From Apostichopus japonicus (Eukaryota > Echinodermata > Holothuroidea > Aspidochirotida > Stichopodidae): DNA of 64,000 nt. Below are positions 25,857-49,500 of the stretch, piece after piece (the first letter of the stretch is position 1; each line of letters opens with the position of its first letter). The notes beneath the pieces are model-generated. The model made no database searches. It saw only the letters and a program-made list of their open reading frames with translations, and was not told where the DNA came from. Location: contig NC_092578.1 of the NCBI RefSeq assembly GCF_037975245.1, positions 16,002,821 to 16,066,820 of the forward strand. The letters are read 5' to 3'. A program made the position numbers and the translations under genes.

Positions 25857-28800
25857 GTAAGTCTACAATCCATCTCAGGGAATGATTTATTTGACCAGTA
25901 TTATTGCGTAGCAAAATGTAATGCATAGTGGTCAAATGCAATGCAACACCTGTCCAATTTTGATGGAAAGATGTTCCATCCTGTCGTACTTGTAAGAAAA
26001 TGTGTTGTCTCAGTCACAGTACTTAGTCGAGTAATTTATTGCCATGATCTATAGCAGCAGTCCCCAAACTTTAAAGGCCCACGACCCAGTATCTTCTGTG
26101 AGGCCAGAGCCAAAAACCCACCAGGTTCCCACCCCGGGATTGCATGAAAAGCTAGCTCTTGACTAAGGAGTTGATGCACATTGTAAAATAACAGTCTCTG
26201 TCAGCCAAGCTCTGAAAATAAATTCTCAAAATAAAATAAAACTGTTAGCAAACTGCTTATCCGATAGAGAGCCTGTGTAATAGAACGTGTAAAAGTAAGT
26301 TGGCCTGACGTTGCGATCCTAGCAGGATCTTCTTCTCCAACGAAATATTTTTCCGCCCCATAGTTTAGGGTCCGTAGATCAACATTACAGCACAGTATGC
26401 AGTAAACTGCCAGTCTTTGGTTGGTACTTTCCGAAAGGCATACAGTAGTATAAAAATAAAATATTGGTTATTTGTAAGTATTTTAAAATGATCTGTTTAA
26501 ATCTTTACCCGGTATCTTAAATGAAAAGTCGCCAACGCTTAATTCCTTTCTCCTTTCTGTTTGTAACTTTGTCAACCGCATCAATACAGTGTGATAATCC
26601 CTGAAGGTTTCTTCCCCCCTAGACCTAAGTTCTTCTCCCTCTCAAGTCACCTTTTTTTCCCCCATCCCATTTCCTCTCTGGGCAGTCAAAGAAGTCCTCA
26701 GTGCCTTCGATGCCCTGGAGCTGGAGGCAGCTAACGCTAGATCAGCCACCGGTGTACTGGCATCACACCCGAGCAGCTGCGATATCAAGATCATCAATTT
26801 CTCCATCACGTTTCACGGTGCGGAGCTCTTCTCCGACACAGAGATCGAGTTGAATTGCGGTCGTCGATACGGGCTGGTCGGCCTCAACGGATGTGGTGAG
26901 TGGTTACATTTTGGTTCCGATGATAATCGTAACCTTTGCATTCATCATGGCGTGCTTGTGGGTGCGTGTGTGTATGTGGGTGCATTTGTGACGCCAAGCT
27001 TGTAAGCACGATATCTCAAGAAGGGAAGGTCGGACCAAATTCATTTTTGATGTGTAGTAGAACCACATTGAGTACAAGAAGCCTATTATTTTTGGTGGAG
27101 GTTATTTGGAGTCACAAGGGGTCAAATTGTGAAAACGTTGTGAACATGATATCTCAAGAGGAAAGCTTGGGCAGACCTTATTTGATGTGTAAAAGTGCCA
27201 CATTGAGTACAAGAACCGTATTATTTTTGGTGGAGGTTAAAGGTCATTTGGGGTCAAATTGTGAAAACCTTGTAAACATGGTGTTTCATTACATCATTGA
27301 AAATTAACTGATAAGTTTCTGGTTAAGTAGTACCTGTGTGAATCCCACCCCCTGGTAGAATATTTTAGTATATTTGAAAATAGCAATAGAAGTCAATTTT
27401 CTCCAGCAGAAGTCTGTGATCAAGTTTAACGTCAGTATCACTCAATGTTGATATTTGTAACAGTGGTCAACTTCATTCTGGTATGACCTTAGCTACCAAA
27501 GATGTCCTGAGGCAGGCTGTTAATGTCTTGACCATATATCGGAATGTCAGTTCTCATCCAACCTTGCCACCCGATTGTTTGATAAAACTTGTTGAACGCG
27601 ACAAAAATAAGTATACATATGATTTTTCCAACAGGTAAATCGACCCTTCTCTCGGCACTTGGAAGACGTGAACTCGAAATACCTCGACACGTCGACATCT
27701 TCCACCTGACGAGAGAGATGGAAGCGAGCGACAAGACTGCCTTAGAGAGCGTAAAGGAAGTAGACCAGGAGAAGATGAGGTTAGAGAAAGAAGCTGAAGA
27801 ATTAGCCCATGTGGAGGGGCCAGGTACGTCAAATGGAGGGGTATGCATAGGGGTTAACATTGAAGAGTGGATAAGCCCTATGTTAGGTAGGGGGGGCAAA
27901 GTTGGAGTATGGAAGGTGTCGATAAGAATTAGCCCATGTGGAGCGGCCAGGTGAGTACAATGGAGGAGTATGCATACATAGAGTGAAGCATTTTGAGTTG
28001 CCAGATGGGTTAACATTGAAGAGTGAATAAGCCCTATGTGAGGGGCCAGGTGAGAATATGGAAGTATGAGTAAGAATTAACCCTCATGAAGGGGTCTAGT
28101 TGAAGACATTTCATGTGTTAATGTTTCAAAATCATAAGAAACGGATCGTTTCCAAATGAAATCCCTAGTCATGTTAGGACTTGCTAACGTTTGCTAACGT
28201 TTTATTGCCATATTTTCCGATTGGATTTGTCTGTGAGTGTAATCTTTTACCGCCCGGCAAAGCCGTACAATCGGCCATCACTGTAAACAGGGATTTACCA
28301 TATCATGTTTTATATTGTGGGGGGGGAGAGTGAAGAAGGATGGGCCTTCACCACATGTCAAAGGAGAATTTTTTCTTAATCAACTTTGCCTCTCACAGAG
28401 GCTGAAGAAAGGCTGATGGACATTTACGAGCGCCTTGACGACCTGGAGGCTGATACGGCCGAGATGCGAGCAGCCCGTATCCTGAACGGTTTGGGATTCA
28501 GCAAGGACATGATGCACACCAAGACCAAGGACTTCTCCGGCGGTTGGAGGATGCGAATCGCCCTAGCGAGGGCGCTCTACGTCAAGCCTCATCTACTGTT
28601 GCTGGACGAACCGACAAATCATCTCGATCTGGAAGCATGCGTGTGGTTGGAGGAAGAACTCAAAAAGTAAAAACTGACTCAATAAATTTTTTTTATTTTT
28701 TTAAATTTTTTTTTAACCCCCAACTAACTACGGTCAGTGCCACAGTACACATTCCAGTTTGAAAACACGAGTCCCGAAGTTGTCAGCTTCTCAAGGAATA

Positions 28801-46500: not shown

Positions 46501-49500
46501 GCTTCCCGTCCAGCCCCACCCCCCAACCCCCCTCCCCACCACTTCCAACCACCTTTTGAGAAATCTTAGATCATCTACTGTAATTCACCCTAAGGCAGGT
46601 TTTAGTTATGGAGAAACCCACAGGGTTACATCTAAGATGAGTTTTGCCAAGTTACAAATTAATTGTGAGAGCATTGTGGTCAGTGGTTAAAGGCAGTGGA
46701 CTTGTGATCTAAGGATTGCAGGTTTGAGTCCTGGGCAGATCATTACGTTGTTTTTCCTTGGGCAAGGCACTTTATCTCCCTTGCCTCTCTTCACCCAGGT
46801 GTACAAATGGGGTCCTGTTAGATAAACTGTCACTTGGGTGCTGTTTGGCTGCTGCCATGTGGAAGGGATTGTCTCTATGTTTGACAGGTTATCGTTGACC
46901 AGGGTAATATTGTGGTGCGCATTGAGCACCGTTACCGATGGATATGTCTGCACTTTTATATATCCTCAATATTATTATTATTTTTAATTCCACACAAATC
47001 AAAAATCAATTCCAGTAAGAGACAGTTTCTCCACTGCATTATTCACCCAATTTGACACAGGTGTTGCTAACTGTACTTTCAATCATTTTATAGTTGGTCT
47101 CATAGAGATCTTGCATTCAATAATAAAAAGCTAACACTTATATAGACCACAATTTACAAGATCTTCTTTATCAGAGCCCTTTTCACTCCTCTCGAATAAT
47201 TTGAAGGAAATTGTTCATAAACCAATAGACTTTTATATATATTTTTTTACATAGCAGTTGGCTATTACAATTGACATACCTGTATGCTTGCAGGACCCCA
47301 CGGTATGAACTGGGCCAGCTTTCTCTCTCGAATTCTCTGCAAACTTTTATGTACCTGTGTAAAAAAAGATGATAGTTTGCTACTATCGTAGGTATTTGCA
47401 TACGAAGAGAACACTCTTCTGGTACATTAATGACAGAGCACGTCATAAGAAAGTTCATCGTCATTATGCCTTGCCATGACTATTTTATCACAATGGTTGT
47501 TTACGGTTAGAAACAAACTTCAAATACTTGATATTACAAGAATGGCTAATAAGATTAACAGTGATCAGAATCACCCTTTGTAGACTGTACTCAAAATTCT
47601 CCCGCACAAATCAAACAGAAATCTAAGAAATCCCCACATCTTGCCAAAAATACAGAACACAAGTTTACAGAAACTCTTTTATATACCATGCTGCTTTATA
47701 CGTTCCATCCAAGCACTTAAAATGTTTGTTTTATTAAGACTGTTTGCTACATCATTTTTATGAACTATTGTAATGTGCAGATGTATTTAATCTTACCTTT
47801 TTTCCCTTTTCTTTGCCTGTTAACATATTTTATGATTCCTCTTTATAAATTTTATATTTACACTGGATTGAATGAAAATTTGTAGCCCTACAACACTCTC
47901 TTGACAGTTACCTTAATTTGCATATATAACTTCAGACTGACTGTGTAACTTTCATCTCACAGGAAATAGTTTACTGCTTACATTTGCTGTAGTGTAGTTT
48001 TCAGGTTTATGTATTCGTTTCCTGTAAAATACTGATGTTCTGTGCACAGAAATTTCTATTTCGGCTCACCTGTGTGGGCATGTTTCATTCCCTCTATAAC
48101 ATGCTGTATGATATTTAAGATGGAGATGTAACAGTGGTTACTGTCTCTCATCCCTGAGTGTTTGGGGATGAGAGGGTGGGGTGAGGGGAGGGGTGATAAT
48201 GGCTTACCTGTGTAGGATCTACCTCTCCCTGTATAATATTTAAGATGGAGATGTAACAGTGGTTACTGTCTCTCATCCCTGAGTCTTTGGGGATGAGAGG
48301 GTGGGGTGAGGGGAGGGGTGATAATGGCTTACCTGTGTAGGATCTACCTCTCCCTGTATAATATTTAAGATGGAGATGTAACAGTGGTTACTGTCTCTCA
48401 TCCCTGAGTGTTTGGGGATGAGAGGGTGGGGTGAGGGGAGGGTGATAATGGCTTACCTGTGTAGGATCTACCTCTCCCTGTATAATATTTAAGATGGAGA
48501 TGTAACAGTGGTTACTGTCTCTCATCCCTGAGTGTTTGGGGATGAGAGGGTGGGGTGAGGGGAGGGGTGATAATGGCTTACCTGTGTAGGATCCACCTCT
48601 CCTTGTATGATATTTAAGATGGAGATGTAACAGTGGTTACTGTCTCTCATCCCTGAGTGTTTGGGGATGAGAGGGTGGGGTGAGGGGAGGGGTGATAATG
48701 GCTTACCTGTGTAGGATCCACCTCTCCCTGTATGATATTTAAGATGGAGATGTAACAGTGGTTACTCTGTCTCTCATCCCTGAATGTTCGGGGATTAGGG
48801 GGTGGGGTGAGGGGAGGGGTGATGATGGCTTACCTGTGTAGGGTCTACCTCTCACTGTATGATATTTAAGATGGAGATGTAACAATGGTTACTCTTTCTG
48901 TCATCCCTGAGTGTTTGGGGATGAGGGGAGGGGTGATGATGGCTTACCTGTGTAGGATCTACCTCTCCCTGTATGATATTTAAGATGGAGATATAACAGT
49001 GGTTACTCTGTCTGTCCCTCATCTGGGAGGACACCATGATGTTCTTCGGTTGTAATAATCTTCTCATTACGTCCAGCACTGTCGTCTTTCGTACACTTGG
49101 TTGCTGCAAACATAAAAAGCAAAATCGTGTCTCCCACGTTCCGGTGCAATGATCTTAATTGATGTCGGTGAATCCGGACGTATGCAAATTACAGACATAA
49201 AATCTGGAGATATCATAGGTTACGATTAAATATCAGTTTGAAAGTAGCTTACTGTCATAATGGAGAGACCAGACAGGAAAAAAGGTAAAAATTGTGTTTT
49301 ACTCCAGACTAATGGAGACTATATCAAGGAAAAGTTTGAATTAATTTCTCATGTGCAAGTTGGCAAAATGATACAGTAAGAGAACTGTCAGTGTTACATA
49401 TGCCATGGAGGACACTAAAAAAAGCTTACATGTTTTTTACCTAAGCTAACAGCCTTTTACATACAGACCTACGCTAACAGCCTCTTACATACCGACCTAA

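What the first reader, a model, noticed from the sequence alone, without database searches (positions are those of the whole stretch)
27797..49030. Recurrent tandem duplication of exon-end/donor junctions in two neighbouring genes
Five introns of ABCF2 (3, 6, 10) and gamma-tubulin (9, 12) begin with tandem repeats whose unit includes the end of the upstream exon and its 5' splice site. The repeats differ in sequence, period (34 to ~154 bp) and age, so they arose separately. Random minisatellite formation would not be expected to seed repeatedly on exon-donor boundaries. Possible explanations are slippage or break repair promoted at AGGTRAG-type sites, perhaps at R-loops over nascent donors, or selection for intron-internal donors. 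Intron gain through tandem duplication of AGGT segments is a published model; a row of decoy donors in old, conserved introns is something else and seems undescribed.
Basis: partly seen in the sequence, partly recalled or inferred. Interest (0 to 1): 0.88.

Follow-up and report, generated by a model that had tools for sequence, protein, structure and literature searches.

The report
Repeated splice-donor arrays in sea cucumber
In this sea cucumber DNA several introns begin with tandem copies of the end of the preceding exon and its splice signal; the same oddity is known as "mirages" in lancelets, so the kind is not new, but it shows that genes can live with rows of decoy splice sites.

Summary
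Of 26 introns modelled in the window (ABCF2 11, gamma-tubulin 12, RPL27 3), exactly the five named carry tandem copies of their own exon end plus 5' splice site (echo scores 32-55; other 21 at most 11.5). No acceptor does (0 of 26). The genome is inferred to be Apostichopus japonicus (assembly size, exact 25-base primer).

"Undescribed" is wrong: this is the anatomy of "mirages" in amphioxus genes (PMC3087553, PMC3902484). I found no echinoderm report (open-access library only). In ten genes not chosen for repeats, 5 of 53 donors have the exon tail copied downstream (4 with the donor), 0 of 49 acceptors.

Array starts cluster within 100 bases of donors (16 of 79, 4.7 expected by rotation, p 0.0003; outside the window 11 of 53 against 3.0). 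No TRF array spans an acceptor (6.1 expected). Against a strong donor hot spot: arrays span donors no more often than blind rotation gives (7 against 6.6), and genome-wide donor-motif pairs only about double a reversed control. Best reading: a modest bias to start near donors, plus tolerance of donor-side but not acceptor-side duplications.

The parts
25748..39065 (+). ABCF2 gene model, 12 coding exons, 11 introns, 607 aa
27797..28062 (+). ABCF2 intron 3 array: exon tail 27797-27823, true donor at 27824, two diverged copies with junctions at 27951 and 28050
   Evidence: echo score 32; copies and junctions
31877..32855 (+). ABCF2 intron 6 array: mostly 33-35 base units, true donor at 31924, 15 aligned copies, nested larger duplication with 47 exonic bases at 32129-32293
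   Evidence: TRF 31912-32296 and 32547-32726; copies; nested duplication
32286..32539 (+). dispersed repeat that interrupts the intron 6 array; a second copy lies at 44730-44983 on the minus strand
   Evidence: pairwise alignment, score 184
36498..37881 (+). ABCF2 intron 10 array: 103 base units, 12.8 copies by TRF, true donor at 36531, a degenerate last copy at 37841-37881
   Evidence: TRF 36504-37819, 94% matches; 13 aligned copies, 12 keep GT
43399..56591 (-). gamma-tubulin gene model, 13 coding exons, 12 introns, 500 aa
   Evidence: spliced open frame; PDB match to tubulin gamma-1, E 7.5e-137, for a 231-residue part
48104..49016 (-). gamma-tubulin intron 9 array: units of 114-127 bases, true donor at 48947, six downstream copies with intact donors
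   Evidence: TRF 48104-49007 and 48803-49016
44273..44536 (-). gamma-tubulin intron 12 array: true donor at 44500, diverged copies with junctions at 44435, 44345 and 44283
   Evidence: echo score 40
58096..62139 (-). RPL27 gene (control): 3 introns modelled, none with an array at a donor
   Evidence: the gene name is recalled from the protein sequence

Best explanation
These are mirage-type minisatellites: local tandem duplications that include the exon end and its 5' splice site and then expand. Inferred working: the first donor, next to the true exon, is recognised first and used, and the donors downstream sit inside the intron as unused decoys, so the protein is unchanged. A duplication across a donor leaves the original junction in place at the front of the array, while one across an acceptor would put an acceptor copy and extra sequence in front of the exon. 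Selection therefore removes acceptor-side arrays and tolerates donor-side ones. On top of this filter, array starts are about three times as dense within 100 bases of donors as expected, so the surroundings of donors appear to be a favoured place for arrays to begin in this repeat-rich genome; the cause is unknown. Shown here: anatomy, separate origins, recurrence at one junction, donor-acceptor asymmetry and enrichment of starts in a small sample. Inferred: use of the first donor, purifying selection, mutational bias.
For: 5 of 26 window donors against 0 of 26 acceptors. Ten genes taken without regard to repeats (nine chaperonin-family loci, one compact kinesin gene): 6 of 53 donors scored 20 or more, 0 of 49 acceptors (maximum 17); on inspection five copy the exon tail, four of them with the donor, and the sixth is an array 22 bases inside the intron. 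A stricter model with both splice sites fixed gave 20 junctions in the chaperonin genes: 3 donors and 0 acceptors at 20 or more. Rotation test of starts within 100 bases of donors: 16 of 79 against 4.68, p 0.0003; outside the window 11 of 53 against 2.99, p 0.0007; exon side only, 5 of 53 against 1.49, p 0.022. GC-matched background expects 4.35, 16 seen. TRF arrays only: 0 of 38 span an acceptor against 6.1 (p 0.0005), 13 of 38 start within 100 bases of a donor against 3.1 (p 0.0002). Donor inside the first unit: 7 arrays against 1.48 expected from unit length (p 0.0009), outside the window 4 against 1.07 (p 0.023). In the nine donor-including arrays examined, reading past the true donor meets a stop before the first decoy, or the first decoy is out of frame (frames outside the window rest on profile hits). 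Published mirages have the same anatomy, and data there suggest undisturbed splicing.
Against: Blind rotation of the 38 TRF arrays gives 6.6 spanning a donor and 7 are seen; outside the window 4.49 expected, 4 seen. Spanning as such is not in excess; the excess depends on counting starts or on the unit-length argument. In the window itself no TRF array starts 0-100 bases after a donor. Positives cluster in a few genes, and array density differs between genes (chi-square p 0.02), so the effective sample is small. Pairs of an exact donor motif genome-wide at 15-45 bases: 89 matches against 106 for the reversed motif, 10 against at least 5 distinct arrays with two or more matches; at 75-105 bases 229 against 102 matches, 10 against 6 arrays on contigs C1-C15 (arrays counted by eye, three of the four lists cut at 100 rows); the donor motif is also commoner to begin with (17 against 0 in 247.5 kb, arrays included). 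The depletion of array ends near acceptors by the echo scan is not significant (2 of 68 against 4.19). One donor-bearing array in the five systematic tiles is not exon-anchored. No RNA evidence that the first donor is used. Exon ends outside the window rest on profile matches and a splice-site matrix written from memory.
Confidence: 0.66

Rival explanations
1. Pure tolerance: tandem arrays seed anywhere at random in this minisatellite-rich genome; those across acceptors or whole exons are lost, those across donors survive, and the five in the window are a lucky cluster.
For: Arrays are dense (51 merged TRF arrays in 247.5 kb); 7 of 38 span donors against 6.6 by blind rotation and 0 span acceptors against 6.1; weak motif-pair enrichment genome-wide.
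Against: Starts within 100 bases of donors are in excess by rotation, by GC-matched background and by unit-length expectation, also outside the window, including six arrays that begin 9 to 71 bases inside introns, which tolerance alone does not predict.
Confidence: 0.25
2. Donor-specific mutation: nascent-transcript structures such as R-loops, or breaks at donor motifs, trigger tandem duplication there. This would be one cause of the bias in the best explanation, so the odds overlap with it.
For: Excess of starts around donors; two nested duplications with different left ends at one junction (ABCF2 intron 6); the same kind of array in amphioxus.
Against: Starts scatter from -87 to +71 around the donor, and I saw no shared breakpoint motif by eye (no test made); units are G-rich on the sense strand in some arrays and C-rich in gamma-tubulin intron 9 (by eye); weak motif-pair result; no transcription data.
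Confidence: 0.2
3. Decoy donors are kept by selection, for example to recruit U1 or to buffer splicing.
For: Of 61 decoys aligned over all nine donor positions, 58 keep GT; identity in the donor 9-mer is 0.934 against 0.902 outside it, Wilcoxon p 0.0096.
Against: Copies of one array are not independent; the old ABCF2 intron 6 array shows the reverse (0.82 against 0.89) with weaker decoys (mean 7.5 against 12.1 for the true donor); in the C17 19774 array only 2 of 30 aligned copies cover the donor, and those score 3.4 against 10.6.
Confidence: 0.06
4. Assembly artefact: false expansion of the arrays.
For: Tandem arrays are hard to assemble; one amphioxus mirage appeared aberrantly assembled in the draft genome (PMC3087553).
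Against: The published assembly is from PacBio HiFi reads; window arrays are at most about 1.3 kb, and copies differ from one another.
Confidence: 0.03

Closest known systems
Mirages: minisatellite-like tandem duplications of exon-intron boundaries in amphioxus (Adh3, globins BflGb6 and BflGb9; TnC and PGBD5 as cited or described in PMC3902484)
   Same: Tandem units that contain an exon end and its splice site; unit lengths in the same range (10 to 160 bp there, 33 to 127 here); many copies with intact AG/GT; several unrelated genes affected; BflGb9 is a donor-side case like these.
   Different: Other phylum (echinoderm); donor side only here (0 of 75 acceptors tested), while BflGb6 is an acceptor-side case; no RT-PCR or haplotype data here.
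Intron gain by tandem duplication of AGGT segments (Rogers model; potato RdRp case, PMC4974935)
   Same: Tandem duplication places extra splice signals next to an exon.
   Different: Here an existing intron becomes longer and no new intron is seen; the duplicated unit lies across an existing donor.
Ordinary intronic minisatellites
   Same: Unit sizes and array lengths; such arrays are common in the same genes.
   Different: Those do not include exon sequence or the true donor.

Membership tests
mirage (amphioxus type) | tandem minisatellite-like repeats | tested here: met
mirage (amphioxus type) | unit spans an exon-intron boundary and copies a splice site | tested here: met
   5 of 26 introns in the window; 58 of 61 fully aligned decoys keep GT
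mirage (amphioxus type) | either boundary, donor or acceptor, can be duplicated | tested here: inconclusive
   donor side only here: 0 of 26 and 0 of 49 acceptors; the sample is small
mirage (amphioxus type) | does not disturb normal splicing | not testable with these tools
   no RNA data; the modelled proteins use the first donor
mirage (amphioxus type) | length instability between haplotypes, somatic instability | not testable with these tools
   one assembly only
mirage (amphioxus type) | host is a cephalochordate (all cases that I found) | tested here: not met
   host inferred to be Apostichopus japonicus, an echinoderm; the host group is where it was found, not a mechanistic criterion
intron gain by tandem duplication | a new intron arises inside a former exon | not tested
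   intron positions were not compared with other species

The most novel reading that the evidence does not exclude
The neighbourhood of 5' splice sites is a preferred starting place for germline tandem duplication in deuterostomes (echinoderm and amphioxus alike). It would continually place rows of functional-looking decoy donors at the start of perhaps one intron in ten, and supply raw material for new splice sites and introns.
Probability: 0.27. Interest if true: 0.75.

Novelty: new member of a known kind. Interest (0 to 1): 0.5.

Why it matters
Natural rows of up to about a dozen near-identical donors with, presumably, one in use are a ready-made test of how the splicing machinery picks a donor. 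If the donor-side bias holds genome-wide and in two phyla, it ties minisatellite birth to gene structure and gives a source of new splice sites that can be dated within and between species.

Tried and rejected
Replaced by gene tiles and motif-pair searches.

Motif pairs as a genome-wide test: weak, clumped by a few long satellites (one on C15 gives most matches of the reversed motif), so treated as inconclusive.

Myosin exons were listed, but no sequence could be fetched for them. Upstream flanks of 18 donor-motif arrays could not be fetched. Five systematically placed tiles (50 kb) held 11 TRF arrays; one has a strong donor motif (L053 3981-4517), and by eye it begins about 140 bases after a likely donor and does not include the exon.

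G-rich, R-loop-like composition as the common factor: rejected by eye, because gamma-tubulin intron 9 is C-rich on the sense strand.

Selection on decoys: see rivals.

Rows left out before counting: of 57 chaperonin places, four in two loci (C8:490794 and three at C3) were not fetched; of the 126 kinesin places only the 5 of one gene, picked because its exons lie close together; of 58 exon hits, 5 at the end of the domain were given no donor and 9 no acceptor; from then on, first-exon acceptors were left out too (42 instead of 49). In one search, 6 neighbouring exon pairs gave no junction. One search also counted starts within 100 bases of acceptors (4 in all genes, 1 outside the window) and ends near donors (0), without a null.

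Papers seen only as listings or with nothing useful: PMC9128100 (find returned no primer), PMC8027599 (two passages, no primer sequences in the text), PMC5103432 (sea urchin Sp185/333 repeats; listing and start of abstract only). The Adh and TnC mirage papers were not in view.
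Full report
What was checked. The window holds three genes that could be modelled exon by exon: ABCF2 on the plus strand (12 coding exons, 607 aa), gamma-tubulin on the minus strand (13 coding exons, 500 aa) and RPL27 on the minus strand (three introns modelled). Gamma-tubulin was confirmed against the PDB (tubulin gamma-1, E 7.5e-137).

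The observation. For each of 26 introns I aligned the last 40 exon bases plus the first 20 intron bases to the rest of the intron. Five introns stand apart (scores 32, 45, 45.5, 55, 40), the five in the finding; the other 21 score at most 11.5, donors of other introns at most 14.5, and the same test at acceptors at most 11. Copies are listed. ABCF2 intron 10 is the cleanest: 103-base units, 12.8 copies by TRF, 94% matches. In ABCF2 intron 6 the same junction was duplicated at least twice with different left ends (10-12 and 47 exonic bases), and a dispersed element later split the array; another copy of that element lies in the gamma-tubulin gene. Intron 3 and TUBG intron 12 are diverged, with 2-3 copies. 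Age differences and separate origins are therefore real.

The organism. The window lies on contig C18 of a 671,581,487-base genome in 35 contigs. The published Apostichopus japonicus assembly is 671.64 Mb in 34 scaffolds, from PacBio HiFi reads, GC 38.56% (passages of PMC10344927); window GC is 38.4%. A published 25-base A. japonicus primer (LBP-F, passage of PMC4264123) matches this genome exactly at one place, with one further place at one mismatch. I take it as A. japonicus, an echinoderm.

Is it peculiar to this window? I fetched nine chaperonin-family loci (PF00118; 53 of the 57 places) and one kinesin gene (5 of the 126 places, picked for closely spaced exons), without regard to repeats. 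Of 53 donors, 6 gave an echo score of 20 or more; of 49 acceptors, none (maximum 17). A stricter model with both splice sites fixed gave 20 junctions, 3 donors at 20 or more and no acceptor. Reading the sequences shows that five of the six copy the exon tail. One gene on C21 has three of them (46-base units, about 12 copies; 121-base units, about 7 copies; and a single copy that stops three bases short of the donor), and one on C17 has two (one with 10 exonic bases, one starting two bases before the junction). The sixth is an array 22 bases inside the intron whose donor had been placed wrongly. So four of 53 include the donor, five of 53 the exon tail.

Statistics. A uniform scan of 164,701 bases for windows with a downstream echo but no upstream echo gave 56 array starts; shuffled sequence (blocks of three bases) gave none above threshold in 16,393 windows. 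Starts within 100 bases of a donor: 16 of 79 donors against 4.68 by per-gene rotation (p 0.0003); outside the window 11 of 53 against 2.99 (p 0.0007); in the window 5 of 26 against 1.68 (p 0.012). Exon side only: 10 of 79 against 2.33 (p 0.001) and 5 of 53 against 1.49 (p 0.022). Array ends near acceptors: 2 of 68 against 4.19 (p 0.19, not significant). GC does not explain the starts: matched background expects 4.35 near donors. With TRF arrays alone (38 in these genes): 13 start within 100 bases of a donor against 3.1 (p 0.0002), none spans an acceptor against 6.1 (p 0.0005), but 7 span a donor against 6.6, no excess. A rotated array may cover a donor in ways that would destroy the exon; if only the first unit may contain the donor, 1.48 are expected from unit lengths and 7 seen (p 0.0009), outside the window 1.07 and 4 (p 0.023). 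Starts 0-100 bases after a donor: 6 against 1.69 (p 0.008), all six outside the window. The conclusion depends on which null is used, and arrays cluster by gene (p 0.02), so I call the donor bias likely but modest.

Genome-wide motif pairs. CAGGTGAGT twice at 15-45 bases: 89 matches against 106 for the reversed motif; in distinct arrays with two or more matches my count is 10 against at least 5 (the second list shows 100 of 106). At 75-105 bases: 229 against 102 matches, and 10 against 6 arrays on contigs C1-C15 (lists cut at 100 rows). The true motif is commoner anyway (17 against 0 in 247.5 kb, arrays included). This does not support a strong donor-seeking mechanism.

How it probably works. 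In the nine donor-including arrays examined, continuing past the true donor meets a stop codon before the first decoy, or the first decoy would shift the frame (frames of the four chaperonin cases rest on profile hits). The modelled proteins use the first donor. That donor is transcribed first and lies next to the exon, so its use is the simplest reading (inferred). The same first-come logic would harm genes with acceptor copies, which fits their absence. Decoys match or exceed the true donor in most copies of ABCF2 intron 10 (9 of 13), TUBG intron 9 (7 of 7) and the two C21 arrays (7 of 7, 10 of 12), but not in ABCF2 intron 6 (0 of 15) or TUBG intron 12 (0 of 3). In the two C17 arrays most copies did not align over all nine donor positions (2 of 30 and 1 of 36 did). 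Pooled identity in the donor 9-mer is slightly higher than outside (0.934 against 0.902, p 0.0096, 61 decoys), but the copies are not independent and intron 6 shows the reverse. Selection for decoys is not established.

What is known. Tandem duplications across exon-intron boundaries were named mirages in amphioxus Adh3 and described in globin genes (PMC3087553: abstract and passages) and PGBD5, where Adh and TnC are cited (PMC3902484: one passage). The Adh and TnC papers themselves were not read. Units there are 10-160 bp, splicing is said to be undisturbed, and length instability is reported. My searches for an echinoderm case listed none: (15 of 59 papers listed; 3 of 3; 3 of 3), beside on the general theme; the library is open-access only. 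Intron gain by AGGT duplication (PMC4974935, passages) is a neighbour, not the same.

Verdict. A real, recurrent feature; known kind, in a phylum for which I found no earlier report, with a donor-only asymmetry and a measurable frequency (5 of 26 introns here, 5 of 53 donors elsewhere) that a whole-genome scan can settle.

Noticed in passing
window 32286-32539 and 44730-44983 (minus): Two copies of a dispersed repeat of about 250 bases in opposite orientation, one inside the ABCF2 intron 6 array and one in a gamma-tubulin intron; it looks like a SINE, but this was not tested.
   Followed up: partly
L044-L046 (C17:155500-181499): A chaperonin gene of about 22 kb with 16 TRF arrays in its 26 kb tile, while the C8 gene has none and the C5 gene one; array density differs between genes.
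   Followed up: partly
L050-L051 (C1), L041 (C13), L044-L046 (C17): Six introns whose tandem array begins 9 to 71 bases after the donor without including the exon: a second class next to the junction-spanning ones.
   Followed up: partly
L048 6548-7018 (C21): Array of 59-base units with a strong donor motif in the unit, upstream of a chaperonin exon; possibly anchored on an exon that the profile missed.
   Followed up: no
window 16252-16673: Three nearly identical 139-base tandem units outside the modelled genes.
   Followed up: no
window 23823-24010: Short stretch that reads by eye like part of a THAP-type zinc finger, perhaps a transposon remnant (motif recalled, no search made).
   Followed up: no
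G000:C15:8601843-8604621: Long satellite of about 28-base steps that holds most genome-wide matches to the reversed donor motif.
   Followed up: no
window 1936-2010 (minus): ARAGORN calls one tRNA-Cys with an odd anticodon (aca), run with the bacterial code; perhaps a pseudogene or repeat.
   Followed up: no
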